The position numbers and the translations under genes are program-made. A stretch of 64,000 nt of DNA from Curtobacterium flaccumfaciens UCD-AKU (GTDB lineage: Bacteria > Actinomycetota > Actinomycetes > Actinomycetales > Microbacteriaceae): the NCBI RefSeq assembly GCF_000349565.1, contig NZ_KB714607.1, forward strand, positions 87,977 through 151,976, given 5' to 3'. The notes under the pieces were generated by a model. That model saw only the letters and a list, made by a program, of their open reading frames with translations, was not told the DNA's origin and did not search any database. Shown in pieces: positions 1,703 through 53,804 of the stretch; within the stretch, counting starts at the first letter, position 1; each line of letters opens with the position of its first letter.

Positions 1703-3391
1703 ATGGACACCGCTGAGCTCCTCATCCTGTTGATCGGATCGCTCGCGGTGACCGGGTTCGCTCGAGCCAAGGGGCTCCCCGCTCCCCTGCTCGTCACAGC
1801 GGTCGCCCTGGCGGCGTCGTTCCTGCCCGGGCTGCCCCCGATGGAGATCGACTCCGAGGTCATCCTCACGGTGATCCTGCCGCCGCTGCTCTACTCCGCC
1901 GCGCTCGACGTGTCGTGGCAGAGCTTCCGCGGCTCGATCAAGCAGATCCGACGACTCGGCATCTTCCTGGTGATCGTGACGGCCCTGGTCGTCGGCGGGG
2001 TGGCGTACCTGCTCATCCCGGACATGACGCTGCCTGCGGCGATCCTGCTCGGCGCGATCGTCGCCCCGCCGGACGCGGTGTCCGCCGCCGCGATCGGCCG
2101 GAAGCTCGGACTCCCCCGGCGTGTCATGACCGTGCTGTCCGGCGAGAGCCTCATCAACGACGCGGCCTCGCTGACCCTGGTGCGCGTGTTCACGCTCATC
2201 ATCGCCGGCACGTCGCTGACGGTCTGGCAGGACCTCGGCATCTTCGGGCTCGCGATCGGCGTCGGCCTGGTCGTCGGCATCGTGCTCGGCGTCGTCGTGC
2301 ACTGGATCCGGATGCGCATCAACGACCCCGTGGTCGAGACGATCATGAGCATCCTGCTGCCGTTCGTCGCGTACATCCTCGCCGAGGACCTGTCCGGCTC
2401 CGGCGTGATCGCGGTCGTCACGGCCGGCCTGTACATCGGCTACAACTCACCGAAGGAGGGCTACGCCACCCGCCTGCAGGAGCGACCGCTCTGGACGAGC
2501 ATCGACGTCATCCTCGAGGGCTTCGTGTTCGCGCTCATCGGCCTGCAGCTCAACACCGTCGTGCAGGACCTGGTGGAGAGCGAGCGCAGCCTCGGGCAGA
2601 CGCTCACCGCGGCGGCTGTCGTGCTCGCGGTGGTGATCCTGGTGCGGCCGCTGTTCGTGTTCGAGTCGTACGTGCGCAACCGGTTCAACGGGAAGTGGCT
2701 CCGGCCGCTGCGGATCAAGCTGTCCCGCGGGCACCCCTCACTGCGGTGGATGCGCGGTTCCGCGGAGCCGAAGCTCAACTGGCGGGAGCTCACCGTCATC
2801 TCGTGGACGGGCATGCGTGGCGTGGTGACCCTGGCGGCAGCGGTCTCCGTCGTCGCGAGCCCGACGCAGATCCCGGCGCAGGACACGATCTTCATCATCG
2901 CCTTCTTCGTCACCGTCGGCACCCTGCTGTTGCAGGGACTCACATTGCCCTTCGTCATCCGCGCGCTCAAGGTGCAGGACCCGGCCGAGGGCGAAGAGGA
3001 CGTGCGCAGCGAGATGCGACTCAACCAGCGCACCACCGAGGCCGCGATCGAGCTGCTCGAGAAGCGCCGTCCGGCGTGGGCGAAGCAGTACGGCTCGGAC
3101 GCTGTCGACTCGGTGGTGAACCGGCTGAAGGCACGACTGGAGCGTCAGGCCGAGACCTTCCGCCAGGACGCCGAGGAAGAAGAGGACGAGGAGCGGAACG
3201 TCGCACTGCGCCTGCGCGGCTCGCAGATCCAGGACATCCGGCGCGAGCTGCTCGACCGCCGCCGCGAGATCGTGCTCGAGGAGCGGGAGAAGGGGAACCT
3301 CGACGAGGAGGTCATGCGCCGCGTGCTCGTGACCCTCGACGCCGAGGAGCTCGCGATGGACTCGGCGCAGGCATCGCGCAGTCGCTCCTGA
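1703..3391 (+). CDS. Monovalent cation:proton antiporter, CPA1 family
   Basis: This 562-residue Na+/H+ antiporter has about twelve membrane helices in residues 5-425. The antiporter core is visible as APPDAVS at residues 121-127 and GESLIND at 147-153, which carries the conserved Asp pair of the ion-binding site. A hydrophilic C-terminal tail of about 130 residues is rich in Arg and Glu and probably forms a cytoplasmic coiled-coil regulatory domain. The family exchanges Na+ or K+ for protons in pH and salt homeostasis. The ATG lies 6 bases after an AAGAAT hexamer, which suggests leaderless transcription. Substrate ion specificity cannot be read from the sequence. Confidence 0.93.
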   Translation: MDTAELLILLIGSLAVTGFARAKGLPAPLLVTAVALAASFLPGLPPMEIDSEVILTVILPPLLYSAALDVSWQSFRGSIKQIRRLGIFLVIVTALVVGGVAYLLIPDMTLPAAILLGAIVAPPDAVSAAAIGRKLGLPRRVMTVLSGESLINDAASLTLVRVFTLIIAGTSLTVWQDLGIFGLAIGVGLVVGIVLGVVVHWIRMRINDPVVETIMSILLPFVAYILAEDLSGSGVIAVVTAGLYIGYNSPKEGYATRLQERPLWTSIDVILEGFVFALIGLQLNTVVQDLVESERSLGQTLTAAAVVLAVVILVRPLFVFESYVRNRFNGKWLRPLRIKLSRGHPSLRWMRGSAEPKLNWRELTVISWTGMRGVVTLAAAVSVVASPTQIPAQDTIFIIAFFVTVGTLLLQGLTLPFVIRALKVQDPAEGEEDVRSEMRLNQRTTEAAIELLEKRRPAWAKQYGSDAVDSVVNRLKARLERQAETFRQDAEEEEDEERNVALRLRGSQIQDIRRELLDRRREIVLEEREKGNLDEEVMRRVLVTLDAEELAMDSAQASRSRS

Positions 3392-6226: not shown

Positions 6227-7117
6227 ATGACCGAAACCGTGCTCGCCGTCCTCAACCAGCCCTCCCGCGACGCCGCGCCGCACGACCCCGCGGCCGACGC
6301 CTTCACGTGGGCGAAGCCGCTCGAGGAGCACGTCCAGGTGCAGGACCTCGGCGTCACCCGCGGTGACGGCGTGTTCGAGACCATCACGGTGATCGACGGC
6401 CGACCCCAGGCCCTCGAGGCGCACCTCGCCCGCTTCGGTCGCTCCGCCGCGATGCTCGACCTGCCCGCCCCCGACCCCGAGGCGTGGCGCCAGGCCATCG
6501 AGGCCGTCTGCGCGCGCCTCGACCCGGTACGGGAGGCCTTCGCCAAGACCGTCCTGACCCGCGGCGTCGAGGGCACCGACCGTCCGACCGGCTGGGTCTA
6601 CGCCGCGCCGTCTGGCGACTCCACGGCCGCCCGCACCGAGGGGATCTCCGTCGTCGTCCTGGACCGCGGCTACCGGCACGACGTCGAGCGCACCTCGCCG
6701 TGGCTGCTGCAGGGCGCGAAGACGCTGTCGTACGGCGTCAACATGGCTGCCCTGCGCGAGGCGGTCCGCCGCGGCGCCGACGACGCCCTGTTCGTCTCGA
6801 GCGACGGCTACGTGCTCGAGGGCACGCGCGCGAACCTGATCATGAAGGTCGGCGACCGGCTGGTCACGCCCCGCACCGACATCGGGATCCTGGCGGGCAC
6901 GACGCAGGCCGACGTGTTCCGCTTCGCTGAGCAGGAGGGCGTCGAGACCGCCTACGAACTCGTCACCCTCGCCGATCTGGCAGCCGCGGACGCGCTCTGG
7001 CTCGTGTCGAGCGTGCGGCAGGCGGCGCCGATCCGTTCGGTGAACGGCGACGCCCGCGCGATCGACGCGGACCTGACGACGCGCATCAACGACTTCCTGC
7101 TGGCGCGCGAGGTCTGA
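6227..7117 (+). CDS. pabC: Class IV aminotransferase, aminodeoxychorismate lyase-like
   Basis: This 296-residue enzyme has the PLP-dependent class IV fold (PF01063). RGDGVFETI near residue 45 is the family entry motif. The PLP lysine is in LLQGAKTLSYG near residue 165, and EGTRANL near residue 203 and GILAGTTQ near 222 bind the cofactor phosphate. Aminodeoxychorismate lyase releases pyruvate to give p-aminobenzoate for folate. The pabB gene at 28 kb and folC at 47 kb make this role plausible, but branched-chain or D-amino-acid aminotransferase activity cannot be excluded. The ATG at 6215 would add four residues. Confidence 0.82.
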   Translation: MTETVLAVLNQPSRDAAPHDPAADAFTWAKPLEEHVQVQDLGVTRGDGVFETITVIDGRPQALEAHLARFGRSAAMLDLPAPDPEAWRQAIEAVCARLDPVREAFAKTVLTRGVEGTDRPTGWVYAAPSGDSTAARTEGISVVVLDRGYRHDVERTSPWLLQGAKTLSYGVNMAALREAVRRGADDALFVSSDGYVLEGTRANLIMKVGDRLVTPRTDIGILAGTTQADVFRFAEQEGVETAYELVTLADLAAADALWLVSSVRQAAPIRSVNGDARAIDADLTTRINDFLLAREV

Positions 7118-7142: not shown

Positions 7143-7232
7143 AGACGCCGTCGTGTCCGCGAGACGCCGCGGAATTGGGCGGTGTCTCGCGGGTGTGACG
7201 GCGTCGTGCCGAAACGACGGCGACTCGCGACC
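7143..7232. repeat. Composite palindromic intergenic repeat, copy A
   Basis: This stretch carries AGACGCCGTCGTGTC, GAGACGCCGCGGAATT, GGCGGTGTCTCGC and GGCGTCGTGCCGAAACGACGG in order. The same order of blocks occurs at about 52880 and 53090. The central GAGACGCCG/CGGTGTCTC pair and the GCCGTCGT/ACGACGG blocks can form nested hairpins. No reading frame is supported. Confidence 0.6.
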
Positions 7233-7242
7233 GGACACCTGA

Positions 7243-7286
7243 CGGACGGGAGGCCCGTGGCGGGCTCGCCACGGGCCTCCCGTCCG
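7243..7286. terminator. Perfect 20-bp hairpin between convergent genes
   Basis: The arm at 7243-7262 (CGGACGGGAGGCCCGTGGCG) is perfectly complementary to 7267-7286, with a 4-base loop. It lies between the convergent pabC-like and amidohydrolase genes and can act as a terminator in both directions. No U-run follows, as is common in actinobacteria. The outer arm recurs at 16662 and 52998. Confidence 0.75.
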
Positions 7287-7336
7287 CCTGTGGCTGAGCC
7301 CACCGCGTCACGCGAGACGCCGGCGTCTCGTGGCCG

Positions 7337-8536
7337 CTACCAGCGCGGCGTGGTGACGCCGGCCCCGTCGGCCCACGCGAACACGGTCTCGCCGTCGATC
7401 CAGACGCGCGTCGCGCGGCTGGTCGCGTCGAGCGGGTCGCCGTCCCAGAGCACGAGGTCGGCGTCGTAGCCCTCGGCCAGGCGACCGACACGGTCGCCGA
7501 AGCCCAGGAACTCGGCCGGGTTGACCGTGAGCGCCTCGAGTGCGGTCTGGGCGGGCAGGCCCTCCTTCACGGCGGCGGTCGCCTGGTCGACGAGCATGTT
7601 GATCGGCACGACCGGCGCGTCCGTCGTGATGGCGACCCGGACCCCGGCCGCCGCGATGGTGGCGAGGTTCGGGATGCCGCGGTCGCGGAGTTCGACCTTC
7701 GAACGGCTGGTGAAGAGCGGGCCGTAGATGACCGGGATGTCCTTCGCGGCGAGCACGTCGGCGATCTTGTGCGCCTCGGTGCCGTGGTTCACGACGAGCC
7801 GGTAGCCGAACTCCTCGGACAGGCGGATGGCGGTGGCGATGTCGTCGTGGCGGTGGGTGTGCTGGTCCCAGACGAGTTCGCCGTCGAGCACCCGGACGAG
7901 CGTCTCCTTCGTCAGGTCGCGGGCGAACGGCTCGTCCTTCGCGGCTGCGGCGTCGCGGGCGGCCTTGTAGTTCTGCGCGTCGACGAAGGCGTCACGGATG
8001 ATCTTGGCGACACCGAGCCGGGTGGAGGGGGTCTGGCCCTTGCCGCCGTAGACCCGCTTCGGGTTCTCGCCGAGGGCGCTCTTCACGCTCACCGAGTCGG
8101 AGATGAGCTGCTCGTCGATCGTCCGGCCGCCCCAGGTCTTGATGGCGACGCTCTGGCCGCCGATCGGGTTGCCCGAGCCGGGCTTGACGACGATGCTCGT
8201 GATCCCGCCGGCGAGCGCGTCCCGGAAGCCCTCGTCGTCGATGTCGATCGCGTCGATCGCGCGGACGCCCGCCATGTTCGGGGCGGTCATCTCGTTCGTG
8301 TCGTTGCCGGCCTCGCCGTTGGCTTCTTCGTGGATGCCGACGTGGCCGTGCGCCTCGACGAACCCGGGGACGAGCCACGAACCCGCGGCGTCGATGACCG
8401 TCATGCCGTCGGGCGGGGTGACGTCGGGCCCGACCGCGGTGATCCGGCCGTCCTCGACGATGACCGCGCCGCCGTCGAAGGCGGGGGCGGAGACGGGGAC
8501 GACGTGGGCACCGGTGATCGCGAAGGAGTTGCTCAT
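7337..8536 (-). CDS. Amidohydrolase, imidazolonepropionase-like
   Basis: This 399-residue metal-dependent hydrolase of the amidohydrolase superfamily has a split beta-sandwich: strand-rich residues 1-55 and 355-399 flank a TIM barrel. Metal-binding motifs are EAHGHVG near residue 62, DQHTHRHDD near 221 and VNHGTEAH near 249. ITTDAPVVP near residue 309 supplies the catalytic Asp. The family's usual HxH after strand 1 appears here as HGH. Imidazolonepropionase-like proteins act on cyclic amides. No histidine-use genes are nearby, so the substrate is unknown. The ATG lies 7 bases after a TACCGT hexamer, which supports this start. Confidence 0.88.
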   Translation of the reverse strand: MSNSFAITGAHVVPVSAPAFDGGAVIVEDGRITAVGPDVTPPDGMTVIDAAGSWLVPGFVEAHGHVGIHEEANGEAGNDTNEMTAPNMAGVRAIDAIDIDDEGFRDALAGGITSIVVKPGSGNPIGGQSVAIKTWGGRTIDEQLISDSVSVKSALGENPKRVYGGKGQTPSTRLGVAKIIRDAFVDAQNYKAARDAAAAKDEPFARDLTKETLVRVLDGELVWDQHTHRHDDIATAIRLSEEFGYRLVVNHGTEAHKIADVLAAKDIPVIYGPLFTSRSKVELRDRGIPNLATIAAAGVRVAITTDAPVVPINMLVDQATAAVKEGLPAQTALEALTVNPAEFLGFGDRVGRLAEGYDADLVLWDGDPLDATSRATRVWIDGETVFAWADGAGVTTPRW

Positions 8537-14141: not shown

Positions 14142-16268
14142 CTAGCCGCCGAGCGCCTCGGTCAGCAGCGCGGCCATCGCGTCGAGCTGGATGTCGCCGG
14201 AGTCGACGACCGCTTCGTCCGAACCGTCGAGCGCACGGGCGGCCAGGGACGCCTTCGAGTCGATGAGCTCGGCGATCTTGGTGTCGATCGTCTGCGCGGC
14301 GATGATGCGCCACGCGGTGACGGGCTCTTCCTGTCCGATGCGGTGCACGCGGTCGATCGCCTGGGTCTGCTCGGCGCTCGTCCACGACAGCTCGGCGAGC
14401 ACGACGTTCGACGACACCTGCAGGTTCAGGCCGACGCCGGCCGCGGTCAGCGAGCAGACGATGACGGCGACGTCGGGGTCGTTCACGAACGAGTCGATCT
14501 CGGCCGTGCGCTGCGTGGGGGTCTGGTCGCCGCGGATCGTGGCGGTGCGCAGCCCACGACGGGCGAACACCTCTTCCGCCTGGTCCATCACGTCGAGGTG
14601 CTTCGCGAAGAACACGACCTTGCCGACGTTCGAGGCGAGCTGCGCGGCGTAGTCGGCCGCGAGCTGGGCCTTGGCCCGGCCGATGCGGCGGACCATCGAG
14701 AACACGTTCTCGCCGGTCGACGAGGCGTCCTGGTCCTCGAGCTCCCAGCGCGCGACCTGGCGGACCAGCTTGTGGTCGATGCCGACGACCGGGTCCTTCC
14801 CGGTGCGGGCGTCGAGGGCCTGGTGGTACCGGCGGACCAGCTTCGCGGTGAGCTCGCGCTCGGCGTCGCGGATGGAGCGGCCCTCGTCGCCGTCGAGCTC
14901 GACGGGGATGTCGGCGATCCGGCGTGCGGGGATGTCCGCGGCGACGTCGACCTTGCGGCGTCGGACGATGCCCTGGTCGATGACGGCGCGGCGGGCCTCG
15001 ACGAAGAACCCGGGGTCGGCCGGGGTCAGGCCGATCTCCTCGAGCTCGTTCATGAGCTTGGCGCGCGGCTTCTTGTCGTCGATCCAGCCGAGGTACTCCC
15101 AGATGGTGCGGAAGTCCTCGACCGAGTTGATGAGCGGGGTACCGGTCAGCGCCATGAGCAGCGGGGTGGCGGTGCGCTGCCGGATGCGCTCGGCGATCTG
15201 CAGCACGAACCGGGCGCGCTGCGAGTCCTTGTTCTTGATGAAGTGCGCCTCGTCGACGACCATCCCCTTGAACCCGAAGTTGCCGAGCCACCCGGCGTGC
15301 CGGTCGAGGATCTCGTAGTTCACGATGACGATGTCGGCGAACCCGTCGAGGTCGTTGCCGTCCCCGTGGATCACCGTGGCGCGGCGGTTCGGCACCCAGC
15401 GCTCGGCCTCACGTGCCCAGTTCGTCTTGACGACGTTCGGCACGACGACGAGCAGCGGGAACGCGTTCGCGGCGTCGGCGGCGAGCAGCGACTGCGCGGT
15501 CTTGCCGAGGCCGGGCTCGTCGGCGAGCAGGAAGGTACGGTGCCCCTGCGCTGCGGCGGTGATGAGCTCCGCCTGGTGCTTCATGAGCGTGGTGCCCGAG
15601 CGCGAGTGCAGCGTCGGGGGCTCCGGCAGCGGCATCGTCGCCGCTCCCCCGCCCGCGCCGTACTCGAACGACTTGAACAGCGGTCCGAACAGTTCCCAGT
15701 TCGCCAGGCGGCGCGGGTGCGCGACGGGCTGGTCGGCGAGGGCGAAGTCCGGAGGCATGAACGGGTTCGCGAGCTGGCGCTGGACGACGGACTGCGGCAC
15801 GACGGCACGCACCGGGGTCTCGACCACCGCGGCGGGCTCGGACGCGATGACGAGGTCCTCCGGCTGCAGCTCGACGCCACCGGCGATCATCATGTCGCGC
15901 TTGACCGCACGCGTCGCCTCGGGCACCTGCACCTCTTCGGCGAGGAGCTGGATGACGCTGGTGTCCCGCGCCGCCGTCTTCGCCAGGATCGTGGCCACGC
16001 CGTCGAGCCGCTTGAGCTGTTCGGCGCGCTGCGCGTCGGTGAGCTCCGTGTCGGCCTTCACCCGCGCGCGCTCTTCGCGCATCAGCAGGGCGACCGCCTG
16101 GAACTTCGTCCGGTTCGACGCCTTGAGTGGTCCGCGCTGCGCCGCGGCCTCGACCTCGCGCACAGCGCGGGCGAGGACGGGGATGACGCCGTCGTTGTCC
16201 AGCGGCCTGGTGCGACGTGACGCGGTCCGCGTCCCGCCGGCAGCACGCCGGGTGCCTGATCGAGCCAA
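14142..16268 (-). CDS. SNF2-family DEAD/DEAH-box ATPase
   Basis: This 708-residue protein has a SNF2/RapA-like double ATPase core. Motif I reads GLGKT near residue 254. Motif II is VDEAH near 338, followed by ALTGTPL. The C-terminal half has the QAIDRVHRIGQ arginine-finger motif near residue 640. The first 220 residues are Lys/Arg/Glu-rich and not recognised. Proteins of this kind move along duplex DNA or remodel DNA-protein complexes. I chose a TTG start at 16268 because an AGGAGGAG Shine-Dalgarno lies directly upstream. An ATG at 16439 in the same frame would add 57 Arg/Pro/Gly-rich residues with no supporting motif. Confidence 0.88.
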   Translation of the reverse strand: MARSGTRRAAGGTRTASRRTRPLDNDGVIPVLARAVREVEAAAQRGPLKASNRTKFQAVALLMREERARVKADTELTDAQRAEQLKRLDGVATILAKTAARDTSVIQLLAEEVQVPEATRAVKRDMMIAGGVELQPEDLVIASEPAAVVETPVRAVVPQSVVQRQLANPFMPPDFALADQPVAHPRRLANWELFGPLFKSFEYGAGGGAATMPLPEPPTLHSRSGTTLMKHQAELITAAAQGHRTFLLADEPGLGKTAQSLLAADAANAFPLLVVVPNVVKTNWAREAERWVPNRRATVIHGDGNDLDGFADIVIVNYEILDRHAGWLGNFGFKGMVVDEAHFIKNKDSQRARFVLQIAERIRQRTATPLLMALTGTPLINSVEDFRTIWEYLGWIDDKKPRAKLMNELEEIGLTPADPGFFVEARRAVIDQGIVRRRKVDVAADIPARRIADIPVELDGDEGRSIRDAERELTAKLVRRYHQALDARTGKDPVVGIDHKLVRQVARWELEDQDASSTGENVFSMVRRIGRAKAQLAADYAAQLASNVGKVVFFAKHLDVMDQAEEVFARRGLRTATIRGDQTPTQRTAEIDSFVNDPDVAVIVCSLTAAGVGLNLQVSSNVVLAELSWTSAEQTQAIDRVHRIGQEEPVTAWRIIAAQTIDTKIAELIDSKASLAARALDGSDEAVVDSGDIQLDAMAALLTEALGG

Positions 16269-16661
16269 CGCTCCTCCTGTTCCGCCCACACGTCGGGGCG
16301 ATCCGCCCGTGGGGCGGGAAGTCCTGCACCGGGGCCTGGCGCGGCTCCGGTTCGGCCGCGGGCCACCGTGGCCCACCGCATCGCCGGTCCCCGCATCGGG
16401 ACGTCCGGTGGACTCCCGCGAGCCGTTCCACACGAGCACCTGCCGGGAGCAGGTTCGGACGGTCCGCGCCGGGATCCGGCGTCGTCACACGCACGTGGTG
16501 CCCCCTCGGGGCGCTCACGGCCCGGTCCCCGCGTCGATCAAGTGATCGACGGCTGCGTCCGGAATCGACGCGGCACGCGGGAACACGGTGCGTGCGCGCT
16601 CAGTTTACTCCCGGACCACCGACGGAGGCGACCGCCGCGTTGCCCGCGCGCGTCGCGACGG

Positions 16662-16705
16662 CGGACGGGAGGCCCGTTGCGGGCCCGACCCGCGCCTCCC
16701 GTCCG
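16662..16705. repeat. Hairpin sharing the CGGACGGGAGGC arm
   Basis: CGGACGGGAGGC at 16662-16673 pairs perfectly with 16694-16705. An inner GCGGG/CCCGC pair extends the structure. The same 12-base arm forms hairpins at 7243 and 52998. Confidence 0.6.
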
Positions 16706-16735
16706 ATCCCGGGCCCCCACGCCGACCACCCCGCG

Positions 16736-16779
16736 AAAGCGACAGTTCCCGCCAACCTTCCACGCAGATCTGTCGCTTT
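16736..16779 (-). terminator. Probable terminator of the phosphotransferase gene
   Basis: AAAGCGACAG at 16736-16745 pairs with CTGTCGCTTT at 16770-16779 (10 bp, 24-base loop). It lies 21 bp past the stop codon of the minus-strand phosphotransferase gene. Confidence 0.45.
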
Positions 16780-16799
16780 GGCGACGGGGCCGCGAGCCG

Positions 16800-51562: not shown

Positions 51563-51770
51563 CGGGACTCCTTGTGGGTTCGCTCGATCTCCACGAGGAC
51601 GGAGCCAGGCTCCGCGGTACCACCTCGTTTGCCGCCCAACGTCCGCTGTGCGACCACTCTGTGTCGGGGATGGTGACGGTCCCGAACCCGCCCGGTTCTA
51701 CTGACGGAGGCGCTGGTGCGCCCCGTGTTCTTCCGGAAGCTCCCCGGTGATGGCCGGATCGATGCTCGTG
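51563..51770 (-). ncRNA. T-box riboswitch of ileS (translational type)
   Basis: The conserved T-box block AGGTGGTACCGCG lies at 51613-51625 and its TGGT would pair with the tRNA acceptor end. The hairpin CGGAGCCTGGCTCCG follows, and the ACGAGG/CCTCGT pair encloses it. Near the 5' end the short stem CCGG-CCATCA-CCGG (51744-51757) presents an ATC isoleucine codon at 51749-51751, which I take as the specifier in an ultrashort stem I. AAGGAG next to the GTG would be the sequestered ribosome site. This is the layout reported for actinobacterial ileS T-boxes, which act on translation. Confidence 0.88.
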
Positions 51771-51806: not shown

Positions 51807-52829
51807 ATGCCCGCAGAAGATCGCCCCGAGTCACTCGTCACCGTCCTGATCGCGTTCGGGGCGAACCTGCTCGTCGCGATCGCGAAGACGATCGCCTCGC
51901 TCGTGTCGGGTTCGGCGTCGATGGTGGCCGAGGCGGCGCACTCGTGGGCGGACACCGGCAACGAGGTGTTCCTGCTCGTCGCCGAACGCCGGGGCGGCAA
52001 GAAGCGGGACGCCGCGCACCCGCTCGGGTACGGACGCGAGACGTACATCTGGTCGATGTTCGCCGCGTTCGGCCTGTTCACGGCCGGTGCGATCGTCTCG
52101 ATCTACCACGGCATCTCGGAGTTCGGGGAGACCGGGCCGGCCGAGGACGTCGTGCTCAACTACGTCGTACTCGGGCTCGCGTTCGTGCTCGAGGGCACGA
52201 GCTTCCTGCAGGCGTACCGACAGGCGCACGGTGCCGCGACGAAGCGGAAGGTCCCGGTGCTGCGGCACGTGCTGCAGTCGTCGAACCCGACACTCCGTGC
52301 GGTGTTCGCCGAGGACGCGGCGGCGCTGATCGGCCTGGTCGTGGCGTTCCTCGGGGTGTTCCTGCACCAGGTCACCGGGCTGGCGGTCTTCGACGCACTC
52401 GGCTCCATCGCGATCGGTGTGCTGCTCGGTGTCGTGGCGATCGTCCTGATCGACCGCAACCGCCGGTTCCTGCTCGGCGAGAGCACGTCGCCGGAGCTCG
52501 AGAACGCGGTGCTCGTCGAGCTGCTGGGCCGGTCGCAGGTCGAGCGCGTCACCTACCTGCACCTGGAGTTCGTGGGGCCGTCGCGGGTGTACCTCGTCGC
52601 GGCCGTCGACCTGACGGGCAACGAGACCGAGGAGCACGTCGCGGTGCGGTTGCGCGACGTCGAGCAGTCACTCGAGGACAGCCAGTACATCGAGGAGGCC
52701 GTCCTCACCCTGAGCTACCCGGGCGACGAGTCCCTGGTGCCGACCGACGGCGCTGTCCCCGAGGTCGTGCGGGACGGCACCGCGTCGGACGTGGCGGCCG
52801 GTGGCGCGGGGACCCTGCGCACGGAGTGA
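51807..52829 (+). CDS. Cation diffusion facilitator (metal exporter)
   Basis: This 340-residue protein exports divalent metals such as Zn, Fe or Mn in exchange for protons. Six helices lie in residues 12-220. The metal-site pairs are HSWAD near residue 46 in helix 2 and AEDAA near residue 170 in helix 5. HPLGYGRE near residue 70 is a conserved loop. The cytoplasmic C-terminal domain starts near residue 225 and has the HLEF strand. A disordered tail of about 30 residues ends the protein. The ion cannot be told from the motif, although HxxxD and a distal ExxxD-like site is compatible with zinc or iron. Confidence 0.9.
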   Translation: MPAEDRPESLVTVLIAFGANLLVAIAKTIASLVSGSASMVAEAAHSWADTGNEVFLLVAERRGGKKRDAAHPLGYGRETYIWSMFAAFGLFTAGAIVSIYHGISEFGETGPAEDVVLNYVVLGLAFVLEGTSFLQAYRQAHGAATKRKVPVLRHVLQSSNPTLRAVFAEDAAALIGLVVAFLGVFLHQVTGLAVFDALGSIAIGVLLGVVAIVLIDRNRRFLLGESTSPELENAVLVELLGRSQVERVTYLHLEFVGPSRVYLVAAVDLTGNETEEHVAVRLRDVEQSLEDSQYIEEAVLTLSYPGDESLVPTDGAVPEVVRDGTASDVAAGGAGTLRTE

Positions 52830-52877: not shown

Positions 52878-52973
52878 GACGCCGGTGTGTCGGCAAGACG
52901 CCGCCATGTGCTCGAGACGCCGCCGGATTCGGCGGCGTCTCGCCGGTGAGGCGGCGTCGTAGAAAGACGACGG
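52878..52973. repeat. Composite palindromic intergenic repeat, copy B
   Basis: Blocks in order are GACGCCGGTGTGTC, AAGACGCCGCCATGTGCTC, GAGACGCCGCCGGATTCGGC, GGCGTCTC and GAGGCGGCGTCG, then GACGACGGCGTGT. GACGCCGCCG-GATT-CGGCGGCGTC is a perfect 10-bp hairpin. It is almost identical to copy C. Confidence 0.75.
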
Positions 52974-52997
52974 CGTGTTCCGTGAGCGACCGCTCGG

Positions 52998-53041
52998 CGG
53001 ACGGGAGGCGCGGTGCCGGGCCGCCACGGGCCTCCCGTCCG
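52998..53041. repeat. Hairpin sharing the CGGACGGGAGGC arm
   Basis: CGGACGGGAGGC at 52998-53009 pairs perfectly with 53030-53041. This is the third intergenic copy of this arm, after 7243 and 16662. It may serve as the terminator of the CDF gene. Confidence 0.65.
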
Positions 53042-53087
53042 TCTTCCCGTCGCGTCCACCGCCCCACACGCGGGAGGAAGACGCCGG

Positions 53088-53190
53088 TGTGTCAGTAAGA
53101 CGCCGCCATGTGCTCGAGACGCCGCCGGAATCGGCGGCGTCTCCGCGACGAGGCGGCGTCGCACGAAGACGACGGCGTGTCCGGGGGCGG
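53088..53190. repeat. Composite palindromic intergenic repeat, copy C
   Basis: The block order matches copy B: AGACGCCGGTGTGTC, AAGACGCCGCCATGTGCTC, GAGACGCCGCCGGAATCGGC, GGCGTCTC, GAGGCGGCGTCG and GACGACGGCGTGTC. An extra AGACGCCGGCGTGTC follows at about 53190-53205. It ends at the TetR gene's stop codon. Confidence 0.75.
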
Positions 53191-53204
53191 AAGACGCCGG
53201 CGTG

Positions 53205-53804
53205 TCAGCGAGCGTCGAGGCCCGCGACCACCGGTGTGAGCGCCGCCGCGACGTACTCGACGAGCGCTCGGCGCCCGACCCCGTCGGTGACCCACACCCC
53301 GAACGCGGCAGCGGCGGCCCCGAGCATCGCACCGGACACCGTCTGCGGCCAGAGCGCTCGCGGCTGCTCCCCCGTGCGGCCCGCGACGAAGGCGGCGACG
53401 GCCTCGTGCTGCGCCGTCACCCGGACCGCGACGCCGGCCACCAGCTCGGGCCCGATGCCCATGACCTCGGCCTGCGCGACCGCCCACGGCACCCGCTCGG
53501 GGTCGTGGGCGCGAGCGGCGTCGAGGAGCGCCTGTTCGACGGCCCGTACGGCACTCGACTCGGTGGACGCTGCGAGGTACCCGGGCAGCCCGGCGACGGC
53601 GGCGTCGAGTTCGAGCCACATCACGTCGGCCTTCGCCGGGAAGTAGTTGAAGAACGTCGCGCGGCTGACCCCGGCGCGGGCGGCGATCTGGTCGACCGTG
53701 GTGCGCCCGTACCCCTGCTCGAGGAACAGCTCGGCAGCGGCGTCCGCGAGGACCTCGGCGCTCGAGCGTCGGGGGCGGCCACCGCGGCGGATCGGTTCGT
53801 CCAT
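53205..53804 (-). CDS. TetR-family regulator
   Basis: This 199-residue repressor has the N-terminal helix-turn-helix of the family at about residues 14-55, ending in TTVDQIAARAGVSRATFFNYFPAK. The C-terminal domain, about residues 75-195, binds an unknown ligand. It is divergent from the ABC importer genes, with only 32 bp between the two start codons, so it very probably controls that operon and itself. The GGRPRRSS N-terminus is typical. Confidence 0.92.
   Translation of the reverse strand: MDEPIRRGGRPRRSSAEVLADAAAELFLEQGYGRTTVDQIAARAGVSRATFFNYFPAKADVMWLELDAAVAGLPGYLAASTESSAVRAVEQALLDAARAHDPERVPWAVAQAEVMGIGPELVAGVAVRVTAQHEAVAAFVAGRTGEQPRALWPQTVSGAMLGAAAAAFGVWVTDGVGRRALVEYVAAALTPVVAGLDAR

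What the first reader, a model, noticed from the sequence alone, without database searches (positions are those of the whole stretch)
52878..53190. A composite palindromic element recurs with the same block order
Copies B and C (about 52878 and 53088) are nearly identical over about 95 bp, with AGACGCCGGTGTGTC, AAGACGCCGCCATGTGCTC, a perfect GACGCCGCCG hairpin and a GACGACGGCGTGT block. A more diverged copy A lies at about 7143. They sit in intergenic space next to different gene pairs. The order and palindromes suggest a non-coding repeat unit that spreads, comparable in kind to REP or ERIC elements but with different sequence.
Basis: seen in the sequence. Interest (0 to 1): 0.65.

Follow-up and report, generated by a model that had tools for sequence, protein, structure and literature searches.

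The report
Phased palindromic repeats at gene ends
In the bacterium Curtobacterium, dozens of gene ends carry the same 100-letter mirror-image DNA signal, built like a ruler from short units 19 letters apart around a hairpin; it looks like a punctuation mark for genes that selection keeps, and what reads it is not known.

Summary
In detail: two 101-bp copies (52878-52978, 53080-53180; 90% identical) and a diverged copy (about 7143-7225), all between the 3' ends of convergent genes. The genome is a Curtobacterium with 34 places matching the hairpin (up to 2 mismatches); 46 of 66 genomes of the genus have 1-40. The element (E1), typically 82-101 bp, is a 13-bp hairpin with a 4-nt loop, flanked on each side by one or two inward-pointing GACGCC units at a 19-bp pitch, the outermost a 'cap'. 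At least 19 of 33 own copies have a second hairpin (E2) nearby.

Of 186 distinct copies 120 are in convergent gaps, 56 tandem, 5 divergent. Orthologous copies keep the hairpin and inner units while spacers diverge; there is little sign of recent dispersal, no clear target-site duplication, and 0 of 66 genomes has the Y1 transposase of REP elements. So 'REP/ERIC-like repeat that spreads' is only partly right: like one by place and shape, but not RAYT-REP. Arm-arm coevolution within genomes and a G-U preference are seen only in the central hairpin. I read E1 as a bidirectional 3'-end RNA hairpin set in a phased, sequence-read DNA array. The reader protein and the effect on transcription are inferred, not shown.

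The parts
7143..7225 (.). E1 copy A: left cap (AGACGCCGTCGTGTC, 7143-7157), hairpin arms 7161-7172 / 7177-7188, inner unit' 7196-7205, cap' 7214-7225; no inner unit on the left
7244..7285. E2 hairpin beside copy A (perfect 20-nt arms 7243-7262 / 7267-7286)
7315..7328 (.). stand-alone cap-like palindrome AGACGCCGGCGTCT
52878..52978 (.). E1 copy B: cap 52878-52890, inner unit 52897-52906, hairpin 52913-52942 (loop 52926-52929), inner unit' 52949-52958, cap' 52967-52978
52999..53040 (.). E2 hairpin between copies B and C
53079..53180 (.). E1 copy C: cap 53080-53092, inner unit 53099-53108, hairpin 53115-53144, inner unit' 53151-53160, cap' 53169-53180
53191..53206 (.). extra cap-like unit overlapping the TetR stop codon; off the 19-bp phase
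16663..16704 (.). lone E2 hairpin without E1, in a tandem gap (16164-16799)
6227..7117 (+). upstream gene of copy A, Pfam Aminotran_4
7337..8536 (-). convergent partner of copy A, Pfam Amidohydro_3/_1
51807..52829 (+). gene ending before copy B, Pfam Cation_efflux
53205..53804 (-). convergent partner after copy C, Pfam TetR_N / TetR_C_14

Best explanation
E1 is a strand-symmetric 3'-end element found, as far as searched, in Curtobacterium. Shown: it sits shortly downstream of stop codons, mostly between convergent genes; its centre is a hairpin that keeps pairing; on each side lie GACGCC units at a 19-bp pitch, with a cap-type unit on nearly every arm of the three genomes examined; hairpin and inner units are conserved at orthologous places while spacers drift; within genomes the outer units show no arm-arm coevolution. 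Inferred: on either strand the central hairpin (helped in at least 19 of 33 own copies by an E2 hairpin within 125 bp) ends or protects the transcript, and the phased outer units are double-stranded DNA sites read by an unidentified sequence-specific protein that makes the gene end a two-way barrier (roadblock to read-through, or a boundary for supercoils between converging polymerases). Copies persist largely by vertical descent and change in number by local tandem duplication and by replacement of whole gaps; no transposase was linked to them.
For: Place: own genome 20 convergent, 13 tandem, 0 divergent of 33, against 22/49/40 in gaps of 60 bp or more without E1 in the same stretches (Fisher for divergent 4.5e-6); relatives 100/43/5 plus 4 at edges and 1 called inside a gene, of 153. 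Median distance from stop codon to the unit position at 38 bp: 22 bp, n=176, 28 of them negative. Pitch (exact hexamer, 186 copies): left at 19 bp 133, at 18 and 20 one each; at 38 bp 73, at 37 one, at 39 three; right 125 at 19 and 0 at 18 and 20, 93 at 38, 0 at 37, 1 at 39. 32 own copies, cut at equal distances from the centre, align without a gap. Footprint, 57 ortholog pairs with coding identity >=90%: flanks 0.44, spacers 0.25-0.375, loop 0.35, caps 0.23-0.25, inner units 0.135, hairpin 0.03-0.05 substitutions per site. Arm-arm pairing, observed against within-genome shuffles: cap 0.601/0.619, inner 0.718/0.728, spacers 0.387/0.408 and 0.359/0.363, hairpin 0.946/0.940, z 3.6 (149 copies of 14 genomes; one search agrees for 33 own copies). 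Wobble in 56 tandem copies read on the transcribed strand: hairpin GU:AC 12:3 (p 0.035), cap 39:35, inner 29:34. Cap-type unit at 19 or 38 bp in 66 of 66 own arms, 67 of 70 in G003, 38 of 38 in strain Ac1393. Outer-unit type differs by lineage.
Against: No reader protein identified; no expression or binding data. The whole element folds very well as RNA (z -3.5 to -7.0), so a long RNA hairpin is not excluded. Caps are only weakly conserved by column (0.23-0.25 against 0.25-0.375 in spacers at >=90% coding identity; 0.38 against 0.48-0.54 in 27 pairs at 80-90%), in part because a cap may sit at 19 or 38 bp. In ortholog pairs, outer and spacer positions that changed on both sides stayed Watson-Crick paired more often than the roughly 0.37 random level (first spacer 30 of 48, second spacer 19 of 28, inner unit 11 of 19, cap 25 of 54); these pairs are not independent. 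The hairpin coevolution comes from the own genome and distant lineages and is absent in G003 and Ac1393 alone; in the 32-copy count over all stems the percentage paired did not exceed shuffles. The hairpin's low substitution rate is favoured by the search, which used the hairpin. Neither hairpin is followed by a T run. Some genomes have no room for either hairpin in the same gap (31 bp in G015, 27 bp in G016) and 20 of 66 have no place within 2 mismatches, so E1 is dispensable. The GU:AC result rests on 15 mismatches.
Confidence: 0.45

Rival explanations
1. E1 is one long RNA hairpin (whole 82-101 nt) that works as a terminator or as a 3'-end stabiliser of mRNA; the units are just its stems.
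For: Strong folding; 3' location; both-sided pair-keeping changes in some ortholog pairs.
Against: Outside the central hairpin, left arms pair no better with their own right arm than with that of another copy. No GU preference in outer units. The 19-bp pitch is also kept in one-sided tandem caps without partner (L020, L024 by eye; arms of type iCCCCC). A hairpin does not need a fixed pitch.
Confidence: 0.25
2. A REP/BIME-type repeat: selfish palindromes spread by a transposase, tolerated at gene ends.
For: Extragenic 3' bias, palindromes, E1-E2-E1 and longer tandem arrays, 0-40 places per genome; one non-local own pair (L020/L026) has 0.75 spacer identity, above the mean of shuffled maxima.
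Against: No PF01797 match in any of 66 genomes, spacers otherwise within shuffled range, no clear target-site duplication, hairpin and inner units constrained at orthologous loci, no match in the plasmid and phage collections or in viral contigs at the sensitivities used.
Confidence: 0.12
3. A MITE: the caps are terminal inverted repeats of a non-autonomous transposon moved by an unknown DDE enzyme that binds 19-bp end repeats, as recalled for Tn5090/Tn402 TniA.
For: Cap-type units on nearly every arm; array of direct units at each end.
Against: Mu-type C-terminal domain PF09299 is in 2 of 7 E1-rich and 3 of 7 E1-free genomes tested, and absent from own, G003, G032, G054 and G045 (its control rang in 0 of 14 genomes); no clear target-site duplication; length varies by whole units; old copies. 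Other transposase families were not searched.
Confidence: 0.08
4. A pure architectural site (for example for gyrase or a nucleoid protein) at places of converging transcription; the hairpin is incidental.
For: Convergent bias and exact pitch; no arm-arm coevolution of outer units; BIME-gyrase precedent (recalled; BIME literature seen only in the listing).
Against: The hairpin is the part with pair coevolution and GU preference. 19 bp is not a whole number of helical turns.
Confidence: 0.1

Closest known systems
REP elements and BIMEs (GTAG/CGTC-tagged REPs, PMC3733652; RepRanger, PMC12306157)
   Same: Extragenic, palindromic, dispersed, mostly between tandem and convergent genes and downstream of coding regions (abstract of PMC3733652); grouped and tandemly amplified.
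   Different: Typically 82-101-bp dyad with 19-bp phased units instead of a 14-40-nt stem-loop; no one-sided unpaired GTAG/CGTC tag; no PF01797 in the genus. 'Actinobacteria', 'Clavibacter' and 'Arthrobacter' had 0 occurrences in PMC3733652; in PMC12306157 'Curtobacterium' had 0, though its tables list three Actinomycetota genomes.
Bidirectional intrinsic terminators between convergent genes
   Same: GC-rich hairpins shortly after stop codons, symmetric on both strands.
   Different: No T run after the stem on either strand; conserved outer units of fixed pitch have no place in the intrinsic-terminator model (recalled).
ERIC and other 100-130-bp imperfect palindromes (recalled)
   Same: Similar length, imperfect palindrome, intergenic.
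Iterons and transposon-end repeat arrays bound by a protein (recalled: plasmid iterons, Tn5090/Tn402 19-bp repeats)
   Same: Direct units of about 19 bp at fixed pitch.
   Different: Dyad about a hairpin, dozens of chromosomal copies at gene ends; PF09299 not correlated.

Membership tests
REP (RAYT-type) | RAYT / Y1 tyrosine transposase (PF01797) in the genome or relatives | tested here: not met
   0 of 66 genus genomes; the same search rings in 5 of 14 control genomes
REP (RAYT-type) | short single stem-loop, 14-40 nt (passage of PMC12306157) | tested here: not met
   E1 is typically 82-101 bp with several units; its central hairpin alone (30 nt) would fit and E2 (42 nt) nearly
REP (RAYT-type) | unpaired GTAG or CGTC tag at one end | tested here: not met
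   GACG and CGTC lie inside the arms on both sides; definition from PMC3733652
REP (RAYT-type) | extragenic, downstream of genes | tested here: met
   176 of 186 copies in convergent or tandem gaps, 5 divergent, 4 at edges, 1 called inside a gene
BIME | alternating palindromes with linkers, tandem amplification | tested here: inconclusive
   E1-E2-E1 in own, G007 and G003 and E1-E2-E1-E2-E1 in G054; units are not REPs
intrinsic terminator | GC-rich hairpin shortly after the stop codon | tested here: met
   median 22 bp from stop to the 38-bp unit position; hairpin pairing kept
intrinsic terminator | U tract after the stem | tested here: not met
   copies B, C and their E2: the only T-run site in 50-56 kb is at 51709; copy A by eye
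intrinsic terminator | stops transcription | not testable with these tools
   no RNA data
MITE | terminal inverted repeats | tested here: met
   cap-type units on 66/66, 67/70 and 38/38 arms
MITE | target-site duplication | tested here: not met
   82 copies, lengths 2-9 and offsets 0-8 (72 tests): the largest excesses are one 6-mer and seven 3-mers against 3.2 expected
MITE | clean empty sites and a matching transposase | tested here: inconclusive
   the two gaps read differ by replacement, not clean insertion; PF01797 absent, PF09299 uncorrelated; other transposases not searched
ERIC | ERIC consensus sequence | not tested
   no ERIC sequence compared

The most novel reading that the evidence does not exclude
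Curtobacterium has a dedicated, sequence-specific DNA-binding protein that assembles on phased units (up to three pointing each way, 19-bp pitch) around a hairpin at dozens of gene ends, giving a protein-assisted two-way transcription stop or chromosome boundary whose recognition sequence drifts between lineages as dialects.
Probability: 0.3. Interest if true: 0.75.

Novelty: new variant of a known kind. Interest (0 to 1): 0.52.

Why it matters
Palindromic repeats at bacterial gene ends are common and poorly explained, and are often read as selfish REP DNA or plain hairpins. Here substitutions, pitch and pairing can be looked at apart: a hairpin that keeps pairing, and phased outer units without arm-arm coevolution, in a genus where no REP transposase was found. 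If a protein reads the array, it would be a new way to close gene ends in a high-GC genus whose gene-end hairpins lack a U tract in the copies read here, and the question is directly testable with a pull-down.

Tried and rejected
Replichore bias: positions in G001 and G005 looked clustered on one half of the contig; of five more genomes, G008, G012, G022 and G044 were listed in full (G050 only 6 of 16) and did not repeat it. Dropped.

DNA-uptake-type word: AGACGCCG is mildly over-represented in the window (18 against 10.6 expected; 2 of 100 shuffles reach 18), and 12 of the 18 are in or beside E1. Dropped.

Known RNA family: only a tRNA in the window at gathering thresholds.

Mobile carrier: no match in plasmids or phages (blastn, E<=1e-5) or in viral contigs (exact patterns).

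Tn402/Mu-type ends: PF09299 does not follow E1.

Helical phasing of E1 to E2: 103 of 123 centre distances are 75-111 bp, with peaks near 78, 91, 98-99 and 110; Rayleigh for 10.5 bp p about 2e-4 (n=109 within 70-125 bp), but orthologs are not independent and neighbouring periods do nearly as well. Kept only as a lead.

Fixed order gene-E1-E2: not constant in tandem gaps.

Literature: (search listings); PMC3733652 (outline with abstract, passages, section 6); PMC12306157 and PMC8269248 (passages). No paper describing such repeats in Curtobacterium was seen in these listings (20 listed of up to 1,431 per search; 8); the library lacks most subscription journals.

Scripts that went wrong: one search printed nothing (its file was renamed); searches printed many loci on the wrong strand and are replaced.

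Rows dropped before counts: copies with N (in most scripts), duplicate stretches, loci L001-L008, L049, L153 and L183 (repeats of other own stretches) and the five non-Curtobacterium hits L107, L109, L126, L129 and L132. Ortholog pairs: flank matches of 600 bp or more at 80% or more, offset up to 120 bp, one per locus. One search used chosen loci of 14 genomes, not all loci held.

Full report
What was reported and what is there. One search finds the pair as 52878-52978 and 53080-53180, 101 nt, 90% identical. Copy A has the same blocks but one inner unit fewer. The window is G000:C2:87977-151976 of a 3.7-Mb draft.

Anatomy. Thirty-two own copies, cut at equal distances from the centre, align over 112 columns with no gap. 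The centre is CGAGACGCCGCCG-NATN-CGGCGGCGTCTCG. At 19 and 38 bp outside the central GACGCC lie further GACGCC units pointing inwards, and mirror images lie on the other side. In 186 copies from the genus the exact left hexamer is at 19 bp 133 times and once each at 18 and 20; at 38 bp 73 times, against 1 at 37 and 3 at 39; the right side gives 125 at 19 with 0 at 18 and 20, and 93 at 38 with 0 at 37 and 1 at 39. Some arms carry further units at 57 and 76 bp. A cap-type unit, GACGCCG[T/G]CGT[G/C], is at 19 or 38 bp on 66 of 66 own arms, 67 of 70 in G003 and 38 of 38 in strain Ac1393 (up to 2 mismatches in 12, so some inner units also score as caps). E2 is a separate 42-bp hairpin, GGACGGGAGGC...GCCTCCCGTCC; 103 of 123 E1-E2 pairs within 250 bp lie 75-111 bp apart, centre to centre, and 19 of 33 own copies have an E2 within 125 bp.

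Place. With a codon-usage gene caller written for this purpose (compared only with ORFs of the window), 33 own copies fall 20 in convergent, 13 in tandem and 0 in divergent gaps, while gaps of 60 bp or more without E1 in the same stretches are 22, 49 and 40; the 153 relatives' copies are 100, 43 and 5, with 4 at edges and 1 called inside a gene. Orthologous copies among the relatives are not independent. E2 in the own stretches, which were chosen around matches to the composite, behaves alike (20 convergent, 11 tandem, 1 divergent, 2 edge of 34). From the stop codon to the 38-bp unit position is a median 22 bp (28 of 176 negative).

Distribution and turnover. 46 of 66 genus genomes have 1-40 places within 2 mismatches. 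E2 with exact outer arms has 63, 26 and 30 places in three of the four genus genomes sampled (0 in the fourth, G002) and 0 in the 195 genomes of other genera of the family. At the cation efflux / TetR gap, own, G007 and G003 have E1-E2-E1, G008 and G055 E1-E2, G054 three E1 and two E2 in alternation, while G015 has a 31-bp gap, and G047 and G041 have neither; 30 of 66 genomes were fetched, several of them with another gene downstream. At the aminotransferase gap 28 of 30 fetched genomes have an E2-type hairpin whose inner stem differs with compensating changes (G030 is cut by its contig end, in G025 no anchor was found), and four of the 30 (own, G003, G054, and G010 in another dialect) show E1 by eye. 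26 of 33 own copies have an E1 at the same place in G003 and 9 in G007; G007 is the closer genome at these two genes, so loss or replacement is frequent. Within the own genome spacers of copies at different loci are hardly more alike than column-shuffled ones (largest 0.75, pair L020/L026; shuffled maxima mean 0.656, largest 0.78), so there is little sign of recent dispersal.

What is conserved. In 57 ortholog pairs with flanking coding identity of 90% or more, flanks differ at 0.44 of sites, spacers 0.25-0.375, loop 0.35, caps 0.23-0.25, inner units 0.135 and hairpin arms 0.03-0.05; the last figure is favoured by the search, which used the hairpin. Caps are thus only a little slower than spacers by column. 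That the pitch hardly moves comes; the pairs were compared at fixed distance from the centre.

Paired or read as sequence? For 149 copies of 14 genomes I asked whether a left arm pairs better with its own right arm than with that of another copy of the same genome. Only the central hairpin does (0.946 against 0.940, z 3.6, reached by 1 of 2000 shuffles); caps (0.601 against 0.619), inner units (0.718 against 0.728) and spacers do not (for 33 own copies alone). The hairpin signal comes from the own genome and the distant lineages, not from G003 or Ac1393. In 56 tandem-gap copies read on the transcribed strand, hairpin mismatches are G-U rather than A-C 12 to 3, caps 39 to 35, inner units 29 to 34. 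So the centre behaves as an RNA hairpin and the outer units more like a DNA sequence signal. Against this stand the good fold of the whole and a tendency of doubly changed spacer and outer pairs to stay paired across species, on data that are not independent. Outer-unit types differ by lineage (mostly GTCG/GGCG after GACGCC in caps of the own clade, CCCG in inner units of G005, GCCG or CCCG in others), as expected if a trans factor and its sites change together, but shared descent would also give this.

Mechanism. I commit to a two-way 3'-end element: a hairpin that ends or protects transcripts, set in a phased array that a protein reads. The hairpin, position and pitch are shown, and the lack of arm-arm coevolution in the outer units; the protein and the effect on transcription are inferred. 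No T run follows the stems.

Comparison. It resembles REP/BIME elements in place and palindromy but fails three tested RAYT-REP features: no PF01797 in 66 genomes, no one-sided tag, wrong size and build. It resembles a MITE in having inverted caps but shows no clear target-site duplication. It resembles iterons or transposon-end arrays (recalled) in its pitch; the one further transposase domain tested does not follow it. I saw no description of it in the listings. Hence a new variant of a known kind, repetitive extragenic palindromes at gene ends, with an unusual build.

Noticed in passing
L099 6655-7160; L112 2671-3086; L068 1501-1881; G054 gap in L160: Local tandem arrays of 3-4 E1 copies at 156-194 bp pitch, some nearly identical: the composite amplifies in place.
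   Followed up: partly
all loci with E1 and E2: E1-to-E2 centre distances peak near 78, 91, 98-99 and 110 bp, perhaps about one helical turn apart; not tested on independent data.
   Followed up: partly
L161 (G041) gap after the cation efflux gene; L015 near 3000-3110: Another intergenic palindrome with arms around CGAGTCTCG / CGAGACTCG; the G041 gap has no E1.
   Followed up: no
L017 after 3092; L013 before 3043; L033 after 4497: Further inverted repeats next to lone E2 hairpins (blocks such as GCGCATGTTGCGAC and AGCGACAG), suggesting several palindromic families at gene ends in this genus.
   Followed up: no
L249-L252, L042 (G005) against own: In G005 several E1 units carry GACGCCCCCG instead of GACGCCGCCG, in the hairpin as well as in outer units: a lineage dialect.
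   Followed up: partly
L037 3101, 6710, 12822, 13946: Four E1 copies within 11 kb, the densest cluster read in the own genome.
   Followed up: no
L021 9640-9681, L024 3005-3046, L038 3092-3133 and others: Short runs of N fall in the inner part of E2 hairpins in the own draft genome, perhaps where strong hairpins stopped sequencing.
   Followed up: no
E1 hairpin arms: The arms carry GAGACG/CGTCTC, which is the BsmBI/Esp3I recognition word (recalled); probably coincidence.
   Followed up: no
L109 3412 and L129 2294: The same hairpin word occurs in mutually similar DNA, perhaps coding, of an Arthrobacter and a Microbacterium; no 19-bp units there.
   Followed up: no
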